From positions 1,736,001-1,800,000 of the forward strand of contig LR778114.1 of NCBI GenBank assembly GCA_902809825.1: a stretch of DNA of 64,000 nt. Direction: 5' to 3'. The translations under genes and the position numbers were made by a program. Below the pieces are notes generated by a model, which did no database searches, was not told where the DNA came from, and was given only the letters and a program-made list of their open reading frames with translations. How positions within the stretch are numbered: position 1 is the first letter of the stretch; each line of letters opens with the position of its first letter. Source of the DNA: Candidatus Hydrogenisulfobacillus filiaventi. GTDB lineage: Bacteria > Bacillota > Sulfobacillia > Sulfobacillales > R501. Of the stretch, positions 22,751 to 58,066 are shown one piece after another.

Positions 22751-24179
22751 CTACCCGCCGCTGCGCATAAGCCCCGGCACGCGGTCCAGGCCTCGCCCGG
22801 CCAGGTGCCAGAGCGGCAGCGCCTCCAGCAAGGCCAGGCCCGCCGCCGCCGTCAGGGCGCCGGGAGCCACCCCCAGCGCCGGCAGCAGGCGTGCCGCCCC
22901 CAGAGGCAGGGCAGCCACCAAGGGCAGGCCCGCCATCCGGGCCAGCCACGTCACGATACGGCCGTCATAGGGGTCAGGGAAGACGGTCCACAGCCTAGCC
23001 GCCAGCCCCCGGCTCAGCACCTGGCCGCCGGCGGCCAGGAGGGCGGTGCCGGCGGCCAATCCTGCCGGCAAACGCCTGCTCAGCGCCGCCGCCAGGGGCG
23101 GCAGGGCCCGGAAAGGCCAGGTTGAAGACCAGCCCCGGCAGCTGCACCGCCAGCAGCCGGCGGTGGATGCTGCCGCCGGCGGTCCCGCACACCCCGGCGC
23201 ACCAGGCCAGGGTCACCCAGGCCCCGGTCAGGAAGCGGGGACCGAAGGCCAGGGCCGCCGTGCCCCCCGCCGCCACCACCAGCTGCAGGCCGTAGAGCCA
23301 CCCGGCCTCCTGGCGCCGGCGGCCGCGCAGGTCGGCCTCCGCCAGTGCCCACAGCCCTTGCAGCCGGAAGGAGTGGCTGGCCGGGGGGAGCTTTTCCCCC
23401 CGCCGCCGCGCCCGCGCCCAGGCCACCACCACGGCCGGACAAGGGTCAGCCCCGGTACCGGCACCGCCAGCAGCACCCCCGCCAGCAGCAACGTTCCCTC
23501 CAGGCCCACCAGCACCGCCACCCCGCCCCAGTGCCCGCTCACCAGGGTACCCAGGGCCTGGAACGCACCCGCCAGCAGGGCCGGCAACGCCCGGCCCGCC
23601 CCGGCCGGGCCCACCCGGGCGGCCGCTGCGCCGGCCCCGACCAGCACCGTCAACCCCGCCCCGGCCGCCTGGACCGGCAAACCCCGCCGCGCAGGAGGTC
23701 GCTCAGGTCGCGGATGCGGTCCAGCACCACCCACACCAGCAGCGCGGTCACCAGCCACCGTACCACCGCCGGTTCCAGCAGGAACAGGTAGAGGCCCATC
23801 AGCAGGCCGCCGCTGAGACCGGCCGCCAACTGCGTCACGCTGCGCAGGATGACCAACATGGCCAGAGTCCGGGCCGCGCCCGCCCCGCCGGGCAGGAGGT
23901 AGAGGTGGGCCGGTTCCTGATAATACAACGGCGGTTTGGGATGCCAGACCCCCCAGGCCCACAGCGCCACAGGGTCAACCCCAGCGGCAGCTGCCAGCCG
24001 GCCGGCAGCCCGCCGAAGGGCAGCGCGGGATGAGTGAGGTGCCGTTGCAGGACCCACAGCCGGAGGACGGCCTAAAGGGCCTGTATCCCCAGCTGGCGGG
24101 GGTTCCGGAGGATCCGCTGCCAACGGTGCAGCAGGGTCCGCCCCTCCAGGAACCATAAGGCGAACAGGGTCTGCAACAC
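22751..24179 (-). pseudogene. Disrupted polytopic membrane protein (ABC-2-type exporter-like)
   Basis: Starting from GTG 24179 (GAAGGAGG 6 nt upstream), hydrophobic coding segments continue across five interruptions: an in-frame TAG at 24072-24074, then frame changes near 23965, 23690, 23440 and 23105, ending with a stop at 22751. Joined, they give about 475 aa with about ten membrane helices. The soluble opening (Leu-Gln-Thr-Leu-Phe-Ala-Leu-Trp-Phe) and overall plan resemble putative ABC exporter membrane subunits, but I see no ATPase gene next to it. Several other genes nearby show the same kind of damage. Confidence 0.5.
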
Positions 24180-24265
24180 GGGCATCCTCCTTCCCCTCTC
24201 CCCAAGAGGGAACAACCTCCCGCCGCTGGGAAGGCCCCCTCACGACTCGGCCGCGGGGCCATGCA

Positions 24266-24904
24266 TCAGCCCAGTCGCCAGGTGACTTCTGGCTCTAACA
24301 CCGCCTGCAACCGTTCCAGGAGACGCAAGGCGTCCCCCCGACGTAAAACGGGGTGCAAGTACTGATTTTGATAGGTGCGCGGGCAGCCGTAGCAGGAGCT
24401 GTCCGCGTCACAGCCACATGCCCCGCCCACTGGTTCCAGGCCGAGGTGCATGGCTTGCGCTAAGACACCTTCATCCACCAACTGGGACACCAGACCCGCG
24501 CCGCCGGGGACGGCATCGTACAAGACCACCGTCGGCAAGCCGCTGGCGGGCGTCTGACGCACCGTCACTGCCAGGTCGCTAAGGGGGACCTCTAGGGCTT
24601 GCGCCACGCCGGCTTGCACGGCATAGGCCAGTGAGTACACCGCCCCCATATCCGCCATCACGGTACCCCAGACGGACCCGAAGGTCATGCAAACGGTGTC
24701 GGTTTGAAAGGTGTGCGCCAGGGCTACGGACAGCAGCGTGCGTTCTGGGCAGGCTCCCCCATAGGCCGTGGAGTGTGAACGCCGGCGTGGGCCAGAGGCG
24801 CGGCCTCTTTTCTTCTCTGCCCACATGACTCGAGCCAGAAAAACCAGTTTCCCACTCATGGGGCAATTCGCCTCCTTCGGCACAACTCCTGCTGGCGATA
24901 TCAC
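24266..24904 (-). pseudogene. Helicase remnant: DUF1998 C-terminal zinc-binding domain only
   Basis: The frame ends at 24266 and encodes the end of a DUF1998-type (MrfA/DrmB-like) helicase-associated domain. Visible blocks are Tyr-Gly-Gly-x-Cys, Thr-x-Thr-Val-Cys-Met-Thr-Phe-Gly, Leu-Tyr-Asp-Ala-Val-Pro-Gly-Gly-Ala-Gly, and a Cys-x-Cys-Asp...Cys-Tyr-Gly-Cys-x-Arg-Thr-Tyr-Gln-Asn-Gln zinc cluster. The DEAD/DEAH motor that should precede it is absent; to its right lies the defence pair on the other strand. This is most likely the 3' stump of a DNA-repair or DISARM-like helicase cut when the island formed. Confidence 0.65.
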
Positions 24905-25031
24905 GAACCATCAGGGCCATCCGTAGTGCTCGGACAGTATGCTGTACCATTTTTTAACATACCCCAACCCTGGGTTTTCAGCAGGGAACCTGGGACTCCC
25001 TGTCGAAGAACAGCTTAGAAAAGGCTCGGGT

Positions 25032-25060
25032 GACTCTCGCGAAAGCACTACCCTATAATT
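25032..25060 (+). promoter_or_regulatory. Likely promoter of the McrBC-like pair
   Basis: A perfect -10 TATAAT (25055-25060) with -35 TGACTC (25032-25037) at 17-nt spacing lies about 200 nt upstream of the ATPase start. The 24905-25260 stretch holds no gene that I can support and is AT-rich for this window. Confidence 0.5.
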
Positions 25061-25260
25061 ATTGGGCCGATGCGACGACCGGCGGTTCGCTAAGGTCACC
25101 TGGACCGGTGCTGAATCCTTGAGGACATTTACCTTGGCAATCCGTAGCTTCCAAGTGTTCAGGGAGTACGGAAAGAAGATGGCCCATGTCTCAAGTACTG
25201 GGAAGCTACAAAATCCCCTTTCATCTCCATTGGTCCGAGTTTTGTTTAAGGAGTTTGGCC

Positions 25261-26928
25261 ATGCCACAAGCTTGGGTAGAGACGACTGAACAGCGAAATC
25301 AGCTGCACCGGATTGAGGGCAAATACGCTGTTGGAAAGGCATTATGGGCTCCAAAATATGATGAAAATGGTCGCAAGAACGCTTCATGGACATTGCTACC
25401 ACAAATCGCGGTAGGGGACATCATTTTGCACTTGGTGGACGGTAAATTTACGGGAATCTCAATCGTCGACCAAACAGCAAGGGACTTTCGTTGTTTAGAA
25501 GGAACCAGGTGGTCCAAGTATAAAGATTGTTATCTAGTAACCCTAAAAAACTACCAGGCATTTGCGCAACCATTAGATCCCAGGATTTTGTTCCAGCCCC
25601 CATATCGCGAACGTGCTCAACAAATAGTAGAATCCGAGAGCCGTCTCTTCTATACAAAAGCCCTAACGATGCAGGAAGCTTACCTAACACGGCTGCCTCC
25701 GCCTTTAATACGCCTGATTCTAGATGCTTATCATTTGAACCTTCCCGTCCTAGCCCAGATTGGCGGCCAGGAGGTGACGCGCGCCGTGGACCCCAATAGA
25801 GGTGAATACGAGGCCGACCCCACCTCCATCATCCGAGAGGCGGCGGGGCGCATGCAGGCCGCGGGTTATGTTATGGAAGTCCGCGATTTGGCCAGCATAC
25901 TCATCGCGCTCACCGTGCGCCCTTTCGCCATCTTTTCCGGCCGTTCGGGCACTGGAAAAACTGCATTAACCCGACTGTTGGCAGAGGTGTTTGGTTTCTA
26001 CTATTTGAACGTGGCGGTCAACCCTGCTTGGACCGACCCAACCGACCTGGTGGGTTATATTAGCCCCACCACCCACCAGCCCGTGCAAGGCGCGCTTCAT
26101 GACCTGCTAATCCGGCACGTAGACGATGCCATTTTGTGTCTCGATGAGTTCAATACCGCTAAGGTTGAGCATTACTTCTCGGATTTTATGAGTGCGATGG
26201 AGACCCGGCAACGGGAATTTTGGGGGCCCCTGCCGGCCTTGGACCAGTTGGCGCGCGCACAACCAAGCCAGGAAGACCGGCTCCAACTTCCCCGTCGCTT
26301 GCGGGTCATCGGCACCATGAACTTTGACGACTCGGTCCAATCCCTCACTCCCCGCTTGCTCGACCGGGCCACGGTGTTCGAATTCCAGCCAGTGACACCG
26401 GAACAGATCCTCCTCTCGGATCACCCCGAACGCTACGGGCTGGCCTGGGACAGCCTGAAAGATCAGCCGTCCTTACGATGGCCATTTGACGGCATCCCAC
26501 CGCTGCCGGACACAGTTCGGGCCTGGTTTCTGGACCAATTGCGCCAGCTGGAGCCGGGCCTGCGAGCATCGCGGGGGGAGCTCTCCCCTCGCTTAGTGGT
26601 GGAGTTCGGATCGGCGTTGGCCTTAGGCAACGGGGTGCATGACCTCTTCGGGGCCACCCCTGAAGCGGCGTGGATGGCGCTGCTGGATCAGCTTCTTCTC
26701 ACGCGGGTTCTGCCCAAGTTTCAAGGCGCCAGCCGACAGGGAGACCTTCGGGCCCTGGTTCGTCTGGCAGGCGTACTTACCGGGAGTACGCCGCCAGAGG
26801 AGCCCGAACGGTGGGTCGCCTTCCTGCATGACCAGGGACCAAGTAGCCATTATCCTCGCACCTTAGCCAAGATCGCTACCCTGCTCACCAGCGCCGAGGA
26901 GGATGGCTATGCCGTCTATTGGCAGTGA
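25261..26928 (+). CDS. EVE-like domain fused to McrB-type AAA+ GTPase/ATPase
   Basis: 555 aa. ATG 25261 follows AAGGAG by 7 nt; an upstream ATG at 25186 lacks such a site. The N-terminus (about 1-100) resembles an EVE/PUA-like modified-base-reading domain (Trp-Val-Glu opening, Asp-Ile-Ile-Leu-His-Leu-Val-Asp core). The AAA+ module has Walker A Gly-Arg-Ser-Gly-Thr-Gly-Lys-Thr at about 223-230, Walker B Ile-Leu-Cys-Leu-Asp-Glu-Phe-Asn and the Gly-Thr-Met-Asn-Phe sensor-like block typical of McrB. It overlaps the nuclease gene by 20 nt, as in McrB-McrC operons, and probably powers restriction of modified phage DNA. GC is lower in its first 500 bases than in the neighbours. Confidence 0.85.
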   Translation: MPQAWVETTEQRNQLHRIEGKYAVGKALWAPKYDENGRKNASWTLLPQIAVGDIILHLVDGKFTGISIVDQTARDFRCLEGTRWSKYKDCYLVTLKNYQAFAQPLDPRILFQPPYRERAQQIVESESRLFYTKALTMQEAYLTRLPPPLIRLILDAYHLNLPVLAQIGGQEVTRAVDPNRGEYEADPTSIIREAAGRMQAAGYVMEVRDLASILIALTVRPFAIFSGRSGTGKTALTRLLAEVFGFYYLNVAVNPAWTDPTDLVGYISPTTHQPVQGALHDLLIRHVDDAILCLDEFNTAKVEHYFSDFMSAMETRQREFWGPLPALDQLARAQPSQEDRLQLPRRLRVIGTMNFDDSVQSLTPRLLDRATVFEFQPVTPEQILLSDHPERYGLAWDSLKDQPSLRWPFDGIPPLPDTVRAWFLDQLRQLEPGLRASRGELSPRLVVEFGSALALGNGVHDLFGATPEAAWMALLDQLLLTRVLPKFQGASRQGDLRALVRLAGVLTGSTPPEEPERWVAFLHDQGPSSHYPRTLAKIATLLTSAEEDGYAVYWQ

Positions 26929-28534
26929 ATTGATTCGGGCCCAATTCGGTTCCCGTGCCGTCCTCAGCGTGCATGGGCCTCGACAACCCCGGGTGGTGGG
27001 ACCTGCCCGCCCCGCACCACCGTCCCCGCGGCCGCTGGGGCACGGAGTACGCGTGGATCCCCCAGAGCCCTTAGCCCTGTTTGAAGACGTCCCCTACGAA
27101 ATCCGAATTTATGCCCCCCAACCGATCGCCCTGGAACTGGGCGACCACTCCCTGCCGCTTGATTGGGGTGGCCCGCTCAGCGCGGATGCCTGGGTACTGG
27201 GAACCGCTCGTGTGACACTGCGAGCCCTAGGCTGGGCGCGGTTTTACCTGCCGGAACTCCAGCAAGGCCTGGCTATCCCTGTGCGAGCGCGCAAGCTGGA
27301 CTATGACCAGGACTACTGGGCCATGTTGTACGACCTGGAAGAGACCGCCCGCGGCCTGGCCGCACGCCTTCACAGCACCAGCCGCGAGGAGGTGCTCGAA
27401 GCCTCCGTGCCGATAGATTTAGGTGCCTATTGGCGTCGGATGCTAGAGGCGCTCTGGGAAGACATGGCCCAGGCCATCAGCCGTGCCTGGGCCCAGTTGC
27501 CAGTCCAAGCCCAAAGGTTGGACACCGTCGCGGCCTTTGACCGCTTGAAGCGGCCGCGCCCAGCGGACGTTCGGCTGTGGCATCAGCGGCAGCCGCCTCG
27601 CCAAGCGGTCACGCGTTTAGAATGGGTGCACCGAATCCCCGAACGGCAATACCTGCTGGACCTGCTCGACTACCTGCTCACCCGTCTCAAAACCCTGCCT
27701 AGCAGCCCCCCGCTGGCACGTATGCGCCGCTCCGTCAAGCGCCTCCGTCTACAGCTATGTGCCGAGCTTCCCGCCAACCGGCTACAGCCGCCCCCGATTC
27801 CCCAAGGGGTGCTGGCCCAAACCCTGGCCCCGCTGCAACAGGTCATCCAGCTCCATCGCCGCCTGAACCATGGCCTGCTGTTGAGTGCCGGGCCCATTGG
27901 CGTCGCCCTAGAGGATGTGCATCGCCTGTATGAGTACTGGGTTTACCTGCGCTTGGTCGCCACCGTAGTTACGGAAACCGGCGGTACCCTCCAAGATGGG
28001 ATTGGCATCCGACGGGCCCGGCACCCCCTGGAAGTGGTGTTTGCCGAGGGGCAAGACCAGGCTACCATTCGCCTGCGGGATGGGCGGCGGCTACAAGTGG
28101 GCTACCAGCCCTATTATCAGAGGTTACCAACCGTGGACCAACAGCCCGATAACGTCATCACCGTTACCGGCGACGATACCCTGCTCATCTTCGATGCCAA
28201 ATACCGGTTTGAGCACAATGAGACGGCTCGCCAGAAGTACGCCGAGCCTGGGCTGGAAATCCCCCCCATTGAGGCTATCAACCAGATGCATCAGTACCGG
28301 GATGCTATCGTCATCCCCGTCCCCCCCTCTGCTCTGACCTGGGAGCGGCGGGTGCGGGCGGCAGTCACCGTCTTTCCCCTACCCGCCGACCAGCACCCTC
28401 GCTTTGCCGACCACCGCTTCTGGCATAGCATCGGCAGCGTCCAGGTGGGTGCCGTGCCACTATTACCCGGCCACGATACCCTGTTTCGACAGGTCGTGCG
28501 CGACCTGTTGGCCCTGGTTAACCCTGGGGCGTAA
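26909..28534 (+). CDS. McrC-like DUF2357-type protein with a PD-(D/E)XK nuclease domain
   Basis: 541 aa from ATG 26909, placed 6 nt after GAGGAGG, which lies inside the ATPase gene; an ATG 6 nt earlier is less well spaced. The N-terminal part resembles DUF2357. The C-terminal part has the nuclease core: Leu-Leu-Ile-Phe-Asp-Ala-Lys-Tyr (Asp-x-Lys) preceded by an acidic position, then a helix with Gln-Met-His-Gln-Tyr-Arg-Asp-Ala. Such proteins pair with McrB-like motors as the endonuclease of a type IV-like restriction system. Its 3' end overlaps a helicase remnant on the opposite strand by 17 nt. Confidence 0.8.
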   Translation: MPSIGSELIRAQFGSRAVLSVHGPRQPRVVGPARPAPPSPRPLGHGVRVDPPEPLALFEDVPYEIRIYAPQPIALELGDHSLPLDWGGPLSADAWVLGTARVTLRALGWARFYLPELQQGLAIPVRARKLDYDQDYWAMLYDLEETARGLAARLHSTSREEVLEASVPIDLGAYWRRMLEALWEDMAQAISRAWAQLPVQAQRLDTVAAFDRLKRPRPADVRLWHQRQPPRQAVTRLEWVHRIPERQYLLDLLDYLLTRLKTLPSSPPLARMRRSVKRLRLQLCAELPANRLQPPPIPQGVLAQTLAPLQQVIQLHRRLNHGLLLSAGPIGVALEDVHRLYEYWVYLRLVATVVTETGGTLQDGIGIRRARHPLEVVFAEGQDQATIRLRDGRRLQVGYQPYYQRLPTVDQQPDNVITVTGDDTLLIFDAKYRFEHNETARQKYAEPGLEIPPIEAINQMHQYRDAIVIPVPPSALTWERRVRAAVTVFPLPADQHPRFADHRFWHSIGSVQVGAVPLLPGHDTLFRQVVRDLLALVNPGA

Positions 28535-28740
28535 ACACATCCGCATACCGCGCGAACTGCTCGGCAAATGGCATATCACACCGAATCACGACGATACGGT
28601 AGCCCCAACTACGCAGCTCCTCGCGTTCGGCTTGGTCATGCGCCTAGCGCACCGGCTGGTCATGCTGAGGCCCATCCACAAACACACAGACCCCCGGGCG
28701 CCCCGCCCGCTCATAGTAGAAACCTATGCCGGCGGTGCCC
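28518..28740 (-). pseudogene. Remnant: C-terminal nuclease-like tail of a helicase
   Basis: Reading leftwards from about 28740, the frame gives Gly-Phe-Tyr-Tyr, Val-Cys-Val-Phe-Val-Asp-Gly-Pro-Gln-His-Asp and, after an in-frame TAG at 28644-28646, Arg-Glu-Glu-Leu-Arg-Ser-Trp-Gly-Tyr-Arg-Ile-Val-Val-Ile-Arg, ending at 28518. This order (DG-x-x-HD...R-x-x-L-x-x-x-GYR) resembles the very C-terminal domain of some DEAD/DEAH helicases with DUF1998 and of DUF559-type proteins. The rest of the gene is missing; about 28730 is a junction where plus-strand coding of another gene begins. Confidence 0.45.
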
Positions 28741-29418
28741 GGCCGTTGCGCCAGGCGCTCGCCCCCCTGCTGGGGCCGGGCGGGCACCTGGCGGTGAGTC
28801 TTACCCCCTCCCTGCTGGCGGCAGGCCGTTTCGAGGGCCGACCGGCTCTTCTGGCCGCCTATGTCAGCGGCCACCGGAATACGTTGGGCCTCCTGACCTG
28901 GAACGGGCACACCTGGAGCCGGACCGGGTCCCTCTCCGAGCCACCCCAGTATGCCCTCACCCCTCTCAGCGCCGACCGCTTCCGCCTGGGGCTGGTGCCC
29001 CCGGTCACCTACCCCCTGGCCGCAGCTGCCGGCCGGATCACGGCCCTGCCGGCCGTACGCCCCGGCACCATCCCCAACTGGATCCTCACCCCCGCCTCAG
29101 GGACGGTGGGCGGGCCCGTCAGCCCGGTTCCCGCCTCTCCATCAGCGGCTGGGTGCCCTACGCCTGGACCCGGGGCTACCTCACCCTCAACTGGGAGGAC
29201 CCGGAGCGGGCGACCTCATTACCCGGTGGAACGTCCGCACCGCTCCCAACGGCACCTTCCGGACCACGGTCACCATCCCCGCCCGCCTGGACGGCCGGCC
29301 CGTCCCCGCCGGCGACTACCGCCTGACTGCGGTGCTGGGCCGGGGCAGCACCAGCCTCCTGGAACTGAAGTCCTGGATCCCGGTGCGGCCGGCGTCCGCT
29401 GAAGCCGCTGGCGGTTGA
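28722..29418 (+). pseudogene. 5'-truncated, frameshifted secreted beta-sandwich-type protein
   Basis: Coding character on the plus strand starts abruptly near 28730 and passes through three frames: one to about 29120, a second to about 29205, and a third to the TGA at 29416. The last part has a Gly-Thr-Phe-x-Thr-x-Val-Thr-Ile-Pro and a Gly-Asp-Tyr-Arg-Leu-Thr-Ala-Val pattern, typical of bacterial Ig-like/FlgD-like folds. It has no start, and its upstream part has been replaced by the defence island. Confidence 0.5.
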
Positions 29419-50721: not shown

Positions 50722-50796
50722 TCCTCGATAGCTCAATGGTAGAGCACCCGGCTGTTAACCGGGTGGTTGCAGGTTCGAGTCCTGCTCGAGGAGCCA
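50722..50796 (+). tRNA. tRNA-Asn (anticodon GTT)
   Basis: Full cloverleaf, 75 nt, with a 7-bp acceptor stem (50722-50728 with the seven bases before discriminator G793), the anticodon loop CTGTTAA and CCA at 50794-50796. Confidence 0.95.
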
Positions 50797-50803
50797 TTTA
50801 CAT

Positions 50804-50878
50804 GGGCCCATAGCTCAGCGGTAGAGCTGCCGGCTCATAACCGGTTGGTCGGAGGTTCGAATCCTTCTGGGCCCACCA
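50804..50878 (+). tRNA. tRNA with anticodon CAT (elongator Met or Ile2)
   Basis: Cloverleaf with acceptor 50804-50810 paired to 50868-50874, anticodon loop CTCATAA, CCA at 50876-50878. Not the initiator: the acceptor 1-72 pair is G-C. The loop context GGCTCATAACC is also seen in lysidine-modified tRNA-Ile(CAT), so identity needs the TilS determinants. Confidence 0.9.
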
Positions 50879-50907
50879 GCGAGAGCCAGGAATCCGCAAT
50901 TGCATAC

Positions 50908-50982
50908 GGGCGCGTAGCTCAGTGGCAGAGCGCTTGACTCACATTCAAGAGGTCAGAGGTTCGATACCTCTCGCGCCCACCA
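50908..50982 (+). tRNA. tRNA-Val (anticodon CAC)
   Basis: 75-nt cloverleaf: acceptor 50908-50914 with 50972-50978, anticodon loop CTCACAT, CCA at 50980-50982. Its 3' end is the last chromosome-type feature before the mobile element, so it is a candidate attachment site. Confidence 0.93.
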
Positions 50983-51792: not shown

Positions 51793-52686
51793 GTGCGTCG
51801 GGACCGTCCACAGCGATCGCTGCCACTGATAGACCATTTGCGGCAAATCGTGGAGGAGATCAAAGGATTGGGCGAGAGCGCCAATCCCCGGGTCGCACGA
51901 CGCCTGCGACGAGCCGTGCGGCCAGAAATCCAGAACCTCCTGGAGGCGATCGACGCGCTGGATCCGGTGGCCAGGCCCAGATCCTTCTTTGATCCAACAG
52001 ATCCGCGGACGGCGGGCACGATGGCGGCCTTGCTGCTGGTCGCCCAGCCTCGATATGCGCTGGAGGGCCTACCCGCCTTCTACGGGGCCGGTGTCTATGC
52101 GCTCTATTACACGGGCGCATTCCCCGCATATGCGCCAATCTCCGGCACCGATCACCCAATCTACATCGGCAAGGCGGATCCTGTCGACCCATCGGCGAAG
52201 CTCCCCGAGGCCCAAGGCACCGCGCTATATCAGCGGCTGCGAGAGCATGCGGAAAGCATCGGGATGGCGGCGACCACTCTCCGCTTGGCGGATTTCGAGT
52301 GTCGCTTCCTCATCACGCAGAGCGGGTTTCAGAAAGCGGCCGAGGATTCCCTCATCCGGTTTTTCAGGCCGATTTGGAACTCAGAGACGCAGATCTGCTT
52401 TGGCCTAGGCAAGCATGGGGATTCTGCCAAAACCAGAAGGAACAAGCGATCCCCGTGGGACACCATGCATCCCGGGCGCCCATGGGCGACGTCTATCGCC
52501 ACGGACCAAAAGCCGCCGGAGCTGATCGAGCGGCAAATTTCGGAGCACTTCCTGTCGAATCCGATCTACAAGGATTTTCGACAGATTCTGGATTTGTTCC
52601 TCAAGGATACCCTGCAGCTGGTGGCTCCCGCTGTCTTCTCCTCGCGGATCACGACAAAGGACGAAGATCGGGCGGAGGATGACTAG
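51793..52686 (+). CDS. Eco29kI-family type II restriction endonuclease (GIY-YIG nuclease)
   Basis: 297 aa from GTG 51793 (GGGGGAGGCGGGG upstream). GIY-YIG features: Gly-Val-Tyr-Ala-Leu-Tyr-Tyr (about 97-103) and His-Pro-Ile-Tyr-Ile-Gly-Lys-Ala (about 119-126), then Leu-Arg-Glu-His and Glu-Asp-Ser-Leu-Ile-Arg-Phe-Phe-Arg-Pro-Ile-Trp-Asn (catalytic Glu). Eco29kI cuts CCGCGG; the specificity here is assumed only by family. It converges on the vsr and C5-methylase genes and overlaps vsr by 38 nt. It is longer than Eco29kI (about 214), with an extended C-terminus. Confidence 0.82.
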   Translation: MRRDRPQRSLPLIDHLRQIVEEIKGLGESANPRVARRLRRAVRPEIQNLLEAIDALDPVARPRSFFDPTDPRTAGTMAALLLVAQPRYALEGLPAFYGAGVYALYYTGAFPAYAPISGTDHPIYIGKADPVDPSAKLPEAQGTALYQRLREHAESIGMAATTLRLADFECRFLITQSGFQKAAEDSLIRFFRPIWNSETQICFGLGKHGDSAKTRRNKRSPWDTMHPGRPWATSIATDQKPPELIERQISEHFLSNPIYKDFRQILDLFLKDTLQLVAPAVFSSRITTKDEDRAEDD

Positions 52687-53173
52687 AAGCTCCGCGATCG
52701 GGCGCGCCTTTGCCCGGATTGCAGGCAAAGGCGATACGAGCCACGTTCGCGAGAGCTTGCGCAAGGGCCTCCGGAGATTCCGTCTCGCACTCCCATATGA
52801 TGGTCACCGCCCATCCGGCCGCTCGGACGGCTTCCGTCACCCGCGCATCCCGGGCGCGATTGGCGCGGATTTTCTGTTCCCACCACATGGAGTTGGTCTT
52901 GGGAATGCGATGCCTGGGGCATCCCTCATGCCCGTGCCAAAAGCATCCATGCACGAAGATCACCTGCCGGCTGCGCGGCAGGACGATGTCGGGACGGCCC
53001 GGCAGCCTCGGATCATGCAGGCGATATCGGACGCCCATGGCCCAGAGCGCCCGCCGCACCCGCCACTCCGGCTTGGTGTCCTTGGAGCGGATCCGCGCCA
53101 TGATCTCGGATCGGCTCAGCGGACGGGCACGGCGTCGATGCGGGCCGCCCTGTCCAGCGCTCCGCGCAGCCAT
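52649..53173 (-). CDS. vsr: Very-short-patch (Vsr) mismatch endonuclease
   Basis: Family motifs: Met-Ala-Arg-Ile-Arg-Ser-Lys-Asp-Thr-Lys-Pro-Glu, Pro-Gly-Arg-Pro-Asp-Ile-Val-Leu-Pro (catalytic Asp) and Phe-Val-His-Gly-Cys-Phe-Trp-His-Gly-His-Glu-Gly-Cys (zinc ligands). Vsr repairs T:G mismatches from deaminated 5-methylcytosine. ATG 53101 would remove the N-terminal helix, so a start inside the methylase gene (up to 53173) is preferred; the gene overlaps that methylase by up to 58 nt and the nuclease by 38 nt. Confidence 0.85.
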   Translation of the reverse strand: MAARSAGQGGPHRRRARPLSRSEIMARIRSKDTKPEWRVRRALWAMGVRYRLHDPRLPGRPDIVLPRSRQVIFVHGCFWHGHEGCPRHRIPKTNSMWWEQKIRANRARDARVTEAVRAAGWAVTIIWECETESPEALAQALANVARIAFACNPGKGAPDRGASSHPPPDLRPLS

Positions 53174-54255
53174 CGGCCCATCGCCTCCGCCAGCTGGATT
53201 GGCACCGCGTTGCCAATCTGCCGCATGCTCTCCGTCCAGGATCCGGCGAACGCCCAGTCGTCCGGAAAGCCCTGCAGCCGGGCGGCCTCGCGGACGGTGA
53301 AGTACCTCATCGACCCGTCGTCCAGCACCACCATGTTCTCGCCGCCCGGGACGCCGTGATCCCCAGCCTTGATGGTCTTGGCTGGCTCGTCCAGCCGGCT
53401 GCCGGTATGGCCGGGGTAGGCCCGGGCGCCGGGCTGGAACACATGGCCGTTAACGCCGTTGGGCGGGCCCAGGTCCGAGATGGCGTCCCGGACGGTGCGC
53501 CACGGCCGCCCAGGCGGAGCCAGGGCGTGGCGCGACAAGCGCTCAACAGCGGCGATCTGATCCCGGGGAGGCTCCCGACCGGCCACCCGCAGGCCGTGTC
53601 GCGCCCAGTAGGCTCCGTCGATCCACTGATCCCACAGCAGCCGATCCCTGGAATGGGTGGGGGTCGGCGCCTCCAGCGTCACGCCCAGGGAGCGCCGCAC
53701 GCCCGCGATGAACACCCGCCGCCGTCGCTGGGGGGCGCCGAAGTCGGCGGCGTCCAGCAGGAACCATCGCACCTGGTATTCGCCGACCCCGGGACAATCC
53801 GGGGGCGCCTCATCCGGCAGGATCTCCACATCCGGGTCCGCCAGACTGCGGAGCACCCATCGCAGGTAGCCTCTGAACGCGGGTCTCGCCAGGCCGGCCA
53901 CGTTCTCGAACAGGAACGCACGGGGGCGCAGCTCGCGCACCGCGCGGATCGCCTCCGGCCACATGTCGCGAGGATCGAGATGCCCCGCATGCTTGCCTCC
54001 GATGGAGAACGGCTGGCATGGCGGGCCGCCCGCCACCAGATCCACGTCCAGCCCCATGTGCCGCCACCGGACCGCGCGGACGTCGTCCTGCCGGATCGGC
54101 CACTCCATGCCGCGGTTCGCGCGCAGGGTTGCGCAGGCGTGCGTGTTCCAGTCGATCAGGAAGCGATGCTCGAAGCCGGCCCGGGCGAGGCCCAGCGCCA
54201 TCCCGCCGCCGCCACTGAACAGCTCCACGCTGCGCCAAGGGCGACCATCCGCCAT
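53116..54255 (-). CDS. C5-cytosine DNA methyltransferase (Dcm-type)
   Basis: 379 aa from ATG 54255 (GGAGGAGG 9 nt upstream; a GTG at 54273 has no ribosome site). Motif I Leu-Phe-Ser-Gly-Gly-Gly-Gly, motif IV Gly-Gly-Pro-Pro-Cys-Gln-Pro-Phe-Ser (catalytic Cys), motif VI Phe-Glu-Asn-Val, motif VIII Gln-Arg-Arg-Arg-Arg, motif X Gln-Ile-Gly-Asn-Ala-Val-Pro. It protects host DNA from the Eco29kI-like nuclease; together with Vsr it forms a compact R-M set. Confidence 0.92.
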   Translation of the reverse strand: MADGRPWRSVELFSGGGGMALGLARAGFEHRFLIDWNTHACATLRANRGMEWPIRQDDVRAVRWRHMGLDVDLVAGGPPCQPFSIGGKHAGHLDPRDMWPEAIRAVRELRPRAFLFENVAGLARPAFRGYLRWVLRSLADPDVEILPDEAPPDCPGVGEYQVRWFLLDAADFGAPQRRRRVFIAGVRRSLGVTLEAPTPTHSRDRLLWDQWIDGAYWARHGLRVAGREPPRDQIAAVERLSRHALAPPGRPWRTVRDAISDLGPPNGVNGHVFQPGARAYPGHTGSRLDEPAKTIKAGDHGVPGGENMVVLDDGSMRYFTVREAARLQGFPDDWAFAGSWTESMRQIGNAVPIQLAEAMGRWLRGALDRAARIDAVPVR

Positions 54256-54413
54256 GGCCCGCGCCTCCTCCACCTTGCGTTACGTTACCTATAGCATATG
54301 CCAGCCTATCGACCGCGTCCATGCGGTGGCGCAAGCGTTCGCTGCGCTCGCGGTGGGTGCGCCGCGGAATCGCTTTTTTGCCTTAAGCCGCCGCCCAACA
54401 AAGTGGCGACTGG

Positions 54414-56035: not shown

Positions 56036-58066
56036 CTACCTGGCCTCCACATCCGGAGAGGCCGACCCGACCGCATCAGACTCGCTAGGTGGATCGCCCG
56101 CGTGGTCCCGACACCACTCCACGACGCGGCGAGTGTCCTGTTCCCGGACGAACGCCGTCTGCACCCGCTGGGTCTCCCCCCCGATCGGCTTCCACAGAGC
56201 GTCGCCCTTGCCGGCCAGCAGCTCGGCCCCGCCCTCGTCCAGGATGATGTTGGAGTCGGTGCCCTTCTGGACCGCCATGGCGAGGCGGGAGGGGACGTTG
56301 GATCGGAGGATCGACGGTACCGCCTCCACGGTCGGCTTCTGGGTGGCGACCACCACATGCACGCCCGCCGCCCGACCCTTCTGGGCGATCCGGGTCAGCT
56401 GGTCGTCCAGCGCCTCGGCGGCCCGCTTGTCCATCGCCTTGGCCATCAGGCGCAGATCGTACAGCTCATCGATGTGCAGAATCCAAACCGGCAGGCGATC
56501 CTTGGCGGGGCGGGAGGCGTTGTAGGTGGCCAGCTTGCCCGTCGCCGCCTTGGACATCAGATCGTAGCGCCGCTCCATCTCCTCGATCGCCGCCTCCACG
56601 GCCGCGATGGCGTCCTGCGGCTCAACGGCCACCGGGCGCTCCAGCAATGGGCTGCCCTCGAAAAACGGGAACAGGTCCACCCGCTTGGGGTCCACCAGGA
56701 GGAGGCGGAGCTGGGCGGGCGTGTACAGCATGTGCAGGGCGGTGAGGTAGCCCAGGCTGAACACGCTCTTGCCGCTGCCGGTGGTGCCTCCGACCAGCAG
56801 ATGCGGCAGCTCGGTCAGATCCGCCACGACCGGGGAGCCGTCCACCGCCACTCCCACCGGGAACCACGCGGTGGACCATTTGGGCTTGGGCAGGGCGGGC
56901 AGCAGGGATCGCAGGGCCACGATCTCCCGGTGCTCCCGCACCACCTCCGCAGTCAGGCCGGCGCGCGCGAAGCGGAGGCCGCGCAGCCGTCCCTCCGAGG
57001 CCGCCACCAGATCGGGCGCCATGGCCACGATGCGGCTGGCTGGCAGGCCCTTGGGATAGCGCAGCCCCAGCCGCACCACCGTGGGGCCGACCCCCTGCAC
57101 CCGCACGGCGACCCGGTCGAAGCCGAAGCTCGCCAGCGCCTCCTGCAGGACCCTCGCCATCTGCTCGCCTTCAGCCTTGGATCTGGTGGCGGGCCCCCCT
57201 GCGGGCAGGAGGGTCAGAGGGGGCCCGTTTGGACGCAGTGTCTCAGGAACCGGGTCGGACGATTGGTTGGGAATCCCGGGTTGCGCCTCCTCTTCCTCAT
57301 CATCGGCGATGCTTTGCAAAAACCCATAGGCGTCTAGGGACCAGCGCCCAGGCACCCCCGCGTGGTACAGCGCCATGGCGGCCTGCTGCTGCGCCCACTG
57401 GCGCCAGATCTGCCACGTGCCGGCGTGATAGCCATGCGGCCAGACTGGGCCGACCCCCCTGGGGGTGGCGGCGATCTGCACCCGGCGGACCCGCCCAGCG
57501 GATCCGTCCTGCATCCACACGGCGTCCGGTTCGGAGATGGCGAACGAGGCGTCGAGGACAGCGGCGGCTCGCTTGGCCACGGCTGGCGCCACCCGCTGGG
57601 CCGCTGTCGCGTGGGCGGCGTCCATGGCGGCCCAGTGCCGCTCCCAGGCGTCGTGGACCCACTCCGGCCGATGCGCCAGGAACCCCGCCACCACCACCGG
57701 CCATCGCCAGAGAATCCAGTCCAGCCATGCCCTGGGAGATCGGCGGTCCGGCGGAGCGTTGTAGGCCCACAGGGCGGAGCCTGTGACGACCCAGGCCGTG
57801 AGCGCCATCCATCCCATCGTCCCCAGCCAATGGGACCATGGAATGGGATGCGTGGCCACCGGGCTGGCGGCTTGGGTCTGGGAGGAGGTTGACCGGATCG
57901 TGCCAATCGGGGTCCGCGCCGGATGGGTGGGCCCCTGCCAGAAGGCGTGCCAGGCCCGTCGCCACGAGAAGCCGAGCGGATCCGCTACTCCGATGTGGCG
58001 CAGGGCGACCTGCGCCACCATCAGAGCCAGCACCACCGCCACGATGCCGAGCATCCAGGTTGCCAT
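56036..58066 (-). CDS. FtsK/SpoIIIE-like DNA-translocating ATPase (conjugation coupling-type)
   Basis: 676 aa. Three or so hydrophobic segments in the first 140 residues, then an FtsK ATPase: Walker A Gly-Gly-Thr-Thr-Gly-Ser-Gly-Lys-Ser (about 418-426), Leu-Leu-Val-Asp-Pro-Lys-Arg-Val-Asp (about 455), Ile-Asp-Glu-Leu-Tyr-Asp-Leu and Val-Ala-Thr-Gln-Lys-Pro. The middle (about 290-380) is FtsK-alpha-like. In mobile elements such proteins couple DNA to the transfer channel or pump double-stranded DNA. It lacks an obvious gamma DNA-binding domain. Same-strand neighbour of the lytic transglycosylase. Confidence 0.88.
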   Translation of the reverse strand: MATWMLGIVAVVLALMVAQVALRHIGVADPLGFSWRRAWHAFWQGPTHPARTPIGTIRSTSSQTQAASPVATHPIPWSHWLGTMGWMALTAWVVTGSALWAYNAPPDRRSPRAWLDWILWRWPVVVAGFLAHRPEWVHDAWERHWAAMDAAHATAAQRVAPAVAKRAAAVLDASFAISEPDAVWMQDGSAGRVRRVQIAATPRGVGPVWPHGYHAGTWQIWRQWAQQQAAMALYHAGVPGRWSLDAYGFLQSIADDEEEEAQPGIPNQSSDPVPETLRPNGPPLTLLPAGGPATRSKAEGEQMARVLQEALASFGFDRVAVRVQGVGPTVVRLGLRYPKGLPASRIVAMAPDLVAASEGRLRGLRFARAGLTAEVVREHREIVALRSLLPALPKPKWSTAWFPVGVAVDGSPVVADLTELPHLLVGGTTGSGKSVFSLGYLTALHMLYTPAQLRLLLVDPKRVDLFPFFEGSPLLERPVAVEPQDAIAAVEAAIEEMERRYDLMSKAATGKLATYNASRPAKDRLPVWILHIDELYDLRLMAKAMDKRAAEALDDQLTRIAQKGRAAGVHVVVATQKPTVEAVPSILRSNVPSRLAMAVQKGTDSNIILDEGGAELLAGKGDALWKPIGGETQRVQTAFVREQDTRRVVEWCRDHAGDPPSESDAVGSASPDVEAR

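What the first reader, a model, noticed from the sequence alone, without database searches (positions are those of the whole stretch)
24266..28740. EVE-McrB plus DUF2357 nuclease island between two helicase fragments
A probable type IV restriction pair in a lower-GC block is flanked by a DUF1998 helicase stump on the left and a helicase C-terminal remnant on the right, both on the other strand. The two remnants may come from one helicase system or two, suggesting a defence hot spot with repeated replacement.
Basis: partly seen in the sequence, partly recalled or inferred. Interest (0 to 1): 0.6.

Follow-up and report, generated by a model that had tools for sequence, protein, structure and literature searches.

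The report
EVE-McrBC restriction pair between helicase stumps
An apparently intact two-gene bacterial defence system, of a known kind thought to cut DNA with chemically modified bases, sits between the leftover 3' ends of two different anti-virus helicase genes, and its DNA-reading domain seems to come from a different source than the rest of the gene.

Summary
mcrB (start 25261, not 25186) encodes an N-terminal EVE domain plus a McrB AAA+ domain with an NxxD motif. mcrC encodes DUF2357 plus a PD-(D/E)xK nuclease. Catalytic motifs are intact and the genes overlap by 26 bp. The pair recurs in 17 of 41 genomes (including this one) of the order. The flanking stumps come from two helicases, not one: each carries its own native C-terminus. 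The left (24266-24784) is the last ~155 aa of a Druantia-type YprA/DUF1998 helicase without a C-terminal nuclease. The right (28518-28757, one internal TAG) is the Vsr-like end of another YprA helicase, whose intact relative sits in a complete ARMADA operon. No other piece of either exists in the 2.57-Mb genome. mcrB itself is mosaic: GC3 jumps from 43% to 70% at the end of the EVE domain, and the EVE and AAA+ parts have different nearest relatives, which points to a swapped reader domain. A recurrent hot spot could not be shown: seven relatives with the conserved right flank carry no homologue of these genes there. Known kind of Type IV system in an eroded defence island. Targeting of modified cytosine is inferred; the host appears to encode its own 5mC methyltransferases.

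The parts
24266..24784 (-). Left stump: native C-terminus (~155-165 aa, MZB/DUF1998 with CxC...CxxC cysteines intact, no internal stop) of a Druantia-type YprA helicase; the ORF runs on to 24904 without homology
   Evidence: Pfam MZB 2e-10; DruE models; BLASTP to L031/L033/L032/L030/L034 C-termini; only residues 1389-1543 of 1546 present in the genome
24790..25260 (.). Low-GC (53%) intergenic segment upstream of mcrB, no recognised RNA family
25261..26928 (+). mcrB: EVE reader domain (about residues 1-158, 25261-25734) fused to McrB-type AAA+ domain (Walker A GRSGTGKT, Walker B CLDEFN, NxxD as MNFDD)
   Evidence: SD before ATG 25261; AAA_5; EVE tests; motif conservation
25261..25734 (+). EVE domain with distinct composition (GC3 43%) ending at a change point at 25735
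   Evidence: change point LLR 17.5 against a maximum of 9.5 in 2000 permutations
26903..28534 (+). mcrC: DUF2357 + PD-(D/E)xK nuclease (PD...FDAKYR intact), overlapping mcrB by 26 bp
   Evidence: alignment A2; 17 of 41 genomes of the order incl. this one
28518..28757 (-). Right stump: C-terminal ~80 aa (Vsr/DUF559-like nuclease end) of an ARMADA-type YprA helicase, one in-frame TAG at 28644-28646; native stop overlaps mcrC 3' end by 17 bp
   Evidence: DUF559 0.005 for the same region of L029
28751..29418 (+). Truncated, apparently frameshifted host-composition gene fragment marking the right edge of the island
   Evidence: ORFs in shifting frames; GC 73%; no homologue beside the conserved ADH in relatives

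Best explanation
An intact EVE-McrBC (Type IV-like) restriction system is the surviving core of an eroded defence island that earlier also held a Druantia-type and an ARMADA-type helicase system. Inferred mechanism: the EVE domain flips and reads a modified base, probably a modified cytosine, in incoming DNA; the McrB AAA+ ring hydrolyses nucleotide (GTP by homology) and translocates; the DUF2357 stalk of McrC stimulates the ring, and its PD-(D/E)xK domain cuts. Shown here: the genes, domains, intact motifs, native 3' ends of two different helicases, and the composition break. Inferred: the modified base, nucleotide choice, phage restriction, the order of losses, and acquisition of the EVE reader (with upstream DNA) from a lower-GC donor.
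For: Domains and motifs; EVE by three routes: profile against VcaM4I 6yex E=1.7e-16 (mostly carried by the relatives in that profile), direct BLAST to EVE-bearing McrB and EVE-HNH proteins, window-free profile E=5.5e-9. VcaM4I pocket residues W22/P24/W82/Y130 (PMC7897488) have apparent counterparts W29, P31, W84, Y141. Same mcrB-mcrC pair in 17 of 41 genomes incl. this one, 36-55% identical over the AAA+ part. Helicase stumps are two different native C-termini and the only remains of those helicases in the genome. The G001 homologue of the right helicase lies after a DrmD/DpdE/BrxHII-like helicase and a DrmMI/PglX-like methylase, i.e. the ARMADA layout (PMC12458937). GC3 break exactly at the EVE boundary; body closest to the order's McrBs, EVE closest to Agrobacterium/haloarchaeal McrBs whose bodies are far away.
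Against: No activity is shown. The host encodes two PF00145 C5-cytosine methyltransferase genes, one in an intact Eco29kI-like system with Vsr in this window, so a reader of any 5mC would attack the host. If that methylase acts like M.Eco29kI (CmCGCGG, PMC3039593) the context is CmC, which a context-limited reader could spare, but this is untested. The AlphaFold model of the EVE domain was poor (pLDDT 48) and gives no structural support. The place of the McrB body in the tree is weakly supported (90/73, long branch).
Confidence: 0.78

Rival explanations
1. The EVE reader was not recently swapped; the low GC3 of the first 158 codons reflects weak selection or AT-rich domain composition in a gene acquired as one piece.
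For: The whole gene and mcrC are also below host GC3 (70-72% against 88-94%), so the block as a whole is foreign; EVE domains are divergent everywhere.
Against: The step is abrupt, at the domain boundary, and far beyond permutations. Orthologous bodies in the order carry at least three other reader sets (Mrr_N+EVE, EVE-like+MrcB_N, EVE-like+DUF3427), so readers do change on this body.
Confidence: 0.25
2. The left stump is not a remnant but a functional small DUF1998 protein, as DISARM encodes DUF1998 in a separate gene (DrmB).
For: Open frame with no stop and intact cysteines.
Against: It lacks the OB and connector parts and any helicase partner of that family in the genome; its homology begins abruptly at what is residue ~1352-1415 of relatives.
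Confidence: 0.07
3. McrBC and the ARMADA-type helicase were functional neighbours in one composite system (McrBC with DISARM-like genes is a reported association), not unrelated successive arrivals.
For: The helicase native stop overlaps the mcrC end by 17 bp, as in a settled convergent pair; PMC11090510 reports a McrBC clade associated with a DISARM-like system; GC3 of stump and mcrBC bodies is similar (70-74%).
Against: In the order the pair and the helicases were never seen together: in G020 and G021 they are on different contigs, and the seven fetched mcrBC neighbourhoods hold none.
Confidence: 0.25
4. One helicase gene was split by insertion of mcrBC.
For: Both stumps are on the minus strand and flank mcrBC.
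Against: Both are C-termini with their own native ends, in the wrong order for a split, and match different families; the left stump has only weak similarity to the ARMADA-type helicases (E=3e-5 and 0.07) and the right stump matches no Druantia-type one.
Confidence: 0.01

Closest known systems
EVE-McrB / DUF2357-McrC Type IV restriction systems (PMC7641849, PMC11090510)
   Same: EVE fused to NxxD McrB GTPase-like AAA+, followed by overlapping DUF2357-PD-(D/E)xK mcrC
   Different: Single reader only, short (555 aa), reader of different composition and kinship from its body; NxxD motif, so not a CoCoNuT
E. coli K-12 McrBC
   Same: Two-gene architecture, NxxD, DUF2357 plus PD-(D/E)xK
   Different: EVE in place of DUF3578/ADAM; sequence similarity to the solved E. 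coli McrB is marginal (E=0.03)
VcaM4I, EVE-HNH endonuclease (6yex; PMC7897488)
   Same: EVE domain and apparent pocket residues
   Different: HNH nuclease on one chain, no AAA+ motor
ARMADA YprA helicase (PMC12458937)
   Same: Right stump equals the C-terminal Vsr-like end; [quoted passage not shown]
   Different: Only ~80 aa left, with a stop
Druantia III-like YprA helicase (PMC12458937)
   Same: Left stump equals the MZB/DUF1998 end of a helicase with no C-terminal nuclease; intact relatives L030, L033 and L034 follow a ~1050-aa gene
   Different: Only ~160 aa left; the two partner genes tested have no PADLOC DruH match

Membership tests
EVE-McrBC Type IV restriction | McrB-type AAA+ with Walker A/B and NxxD signature | tested here: met
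   GRSGTGKT, CLDEFN, MNFDD conserved with relatives; AAA_5
EVE-McrBC Type IV restriction | EVE-superfamily reader fused to McrB | tested here: met
   no Pfam EVE hit and poor fold model noted
EVE-McrBC Type IV restriction | Adjacent McrC with DUF2357 and PD-(D/E)xK | tested here: met
   P415-D416 and D431-x-K433 invariant
EVE-McrBC Type IV restriction | Restricts DNA with modified bases | not testable with these tools
   needs an assay; host has its own C5 methyltransferase genes
CoCoNuT | NxD motif and coiled-coil domains | tested here: not met
   NxxD (NFDD) present; coiled coils were not computed
[quoted passage not shown]
   met by the homologous operon in G001; in the window only the helicase C-terminus remains
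Druantia III-like (source of left stump) | DruE-type helicase with DruH partner | tested here: inconclusive
   DruE models match; partner of relatives not recognised as DruH

The most novel reading that the evidence does not exclude
mcrB is a recent chimera: an order-typical McrB body had its reader replaced, together with upstream DNA, by an EVE domain from a low-GC donor, so Type IV systems may change targets by reader exchange much as Type I systems change HsdS; the new reader would have to spare the host's own methylated cytosines.
Probability: 0.55. Interest if true: 0.45.

Novelty: new member of a known kind. Interest (0 to 1): 0.33.

Why it matters
It records, in one 4.5-kb stretch, loss of two defence helicase systems beside a retained McrBC pair, and a clean composition boundary between reader and motor in a McrB. 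That offers a test of whether modification-dependent systems retarget by swapping reader domains, and of how such a system coexists with host-encoded cytosine methylases.

Tried and rejected
A single split helicase: rejected by orientation and family. Pfam and PADLOC for the EVE domain and NCBIfam for the whole McrB: no EVE hit. AlphaFold of the EVE domain with 5 sequences: pLDDT 48, not used for a fold search. Viral contigs and phages for this EVE domain: none. GTDB contig scan with the whole McrB: only distant AAA matches. Direct repeats bounding the island: only weak matches, none convincing. Rfam: none. Right-edge fragment elsewhere in the genome: only 30-50 bp chance-like matches. Conserved site in relatives: the alcohol dehydrogenase block is conserved but its left side varies and carries no homologue of the helicases or mcrBC; the left-flank gene has no homologue in the 40 relatives.

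Full report
Setting. The window is C1:1736001-1800000 of a 2.57-Mb single-contig genome; the window averages about 71% GC. All 40 relatives used are from other families of its order, so no congener was available.

The pair. mcrB starts at ATG 25261, preceded by AAGGAG, and overlaps mcrC (26903-28534) by 26 bp. McrB residues ~160-555 are McrB-type AAA+ (AAA_5 4.8e-11), with Walker A, Walker B and the NxxD signature conserved with relatives. McrC has DUF2357 and PDDEXK_7, with P415, D416, D431 and K433 invariant. 17 of 41 genomes of the order, this one included, carry the pair. This is the established architecture of McrBC Type IV systems (PMC11090510).

The EVE domain. Pfam does not call it. 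The single sequence finds only one solved structure, weakly (E=1.3), and that is VcaM4I, an EVE-HNH endonuclease. A profile with four order relatives finds the same protein at 1.7e-16, though that score is mostly carried by the relatives. Tblastn finds McrB-like proteins of Agrobacterium and haloarchaea over residues 2-143 (3e-8 to 2e-7) and, weakly, HNH endonucleases; BLASTP aligns the former over 160-170 residues. A profile trained without the window sequence scores it at 5.5e-9, with 2000 shuffles and several hundred other window ORFs far behind. The VcaM4I base pocket (W22, P24, W82, Y130; PMC7897488) has apparent counterparts W29, P31, W84 and Y141.

A mosaic gene. GC3 is 43% before and 70% after codon 158 (25735); the likelihood gain of 17.5 exceeds every one of 2000 permutations (maximum 9.5). 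Host genes sampled run at 88-94%, while mcrC, the mcrB body and both stumps lie at 70-74%. Upstream intergenic DNA is also low (53%). The body's best matches are the order's McrBs, whereas this EVE has only fragmentary matches there and its full-length matches are in far-off McrBs. Orthologous bodies carry Mrr_N+EVE, EVE-like+MrcB_N or EVE-like+DUF3427 readers (the 'EVE-like' label of the last two is by eye). I infer reader exchange; the tree support for the body is modest.

The stumps. Left: residues 1389-1543 of a 1546-aa helicase (L033) are all that the genome holds of it; relatives of 1510-1578 aa end without a nuclease domain, and L033 matches DruE models over its length. Three of them (L030, L033, L034) follow a ~1050-aa gene; the two tested have no PADLOC match. 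Right: residues 1594-1680 of a 1683-aa helicase, with one TAG. That helicase in G001 follows a DrmD/DpdE/BrxHII-like helicase and a DrmMI/PglX-like methylase, the ARMADA layout of PMC12458937, and G021 has a second, 53% identical helicase. Both stumps reach the native C-terminus, so they are two genes; a single split gene is excluded. The right helicase's stop lies inside mcrC, a 17-bp convergent overlap, which suggests an established tail-to-tail neighbour rather than a random cut. Two stumps of one superfamily flanking the genome's only match to this McrB are unlikely to be coincidental; the literature reports joint ARMADA/Druantia islands (PMC12458937) and a McrBC-DISARM-like association (PMC11090510).

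Hot spot. Not demonstrated. The ADH-aquaporin-PucR block to the right is at least partly conserved in the seven relatives fetched, but its left side differs among the four inspected, and none of the seven holds a homologue of these helicases or mcrBC there.

Self-tolerance. The genome has two C5-methyltransferase genes. One belongs to an intact Eco29kI-like REase/Vsr/MTase set at 51793-54273. This is the sharpest constraint found on the mechanism.

Noticed in passing
window 51793-54273: Intact Eco29kI-like restriction endonuclease (PF09517), Vsr and C5 methyltransferase, near a tRNA-Asn/Met/Val cluster (50722-50982) and an FtsK/SpoIIIE-like gene (56036-58066): possible tRNA-integrated element; implies 5mC in host DNA.
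   Followed up: partly
G000:C1:1864032-1865057: Second C5 methyltransferase match, with what looks like another DNA methylase ORF next to it in L077 (8211-9173, by eye only).
   Followed up: no
window 22751-24243 (-) and 28751-29418 (+): Flanking genes on both sides appear frameshifted (pseudogenes or indel errors in the assembly); left one weakly M50B-like.
   Followed up: partly
L041:7524-9704 and L033:877-4014: A DUF3427 domain is shared by a McrB reader region and by the ~1045-aa gene before the Druantia-type helicase, suggesting a common reader module.
   Followed up: no
L028:1025-5590 and L051:9775-14001 (G001): Beside the G001 ARMADA operon lie a reverse-transcriptase-nitrilase-like (DRT) protein and a HerA/DndH/MADS8-like protein: a dense defence island.
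   Followed up: no
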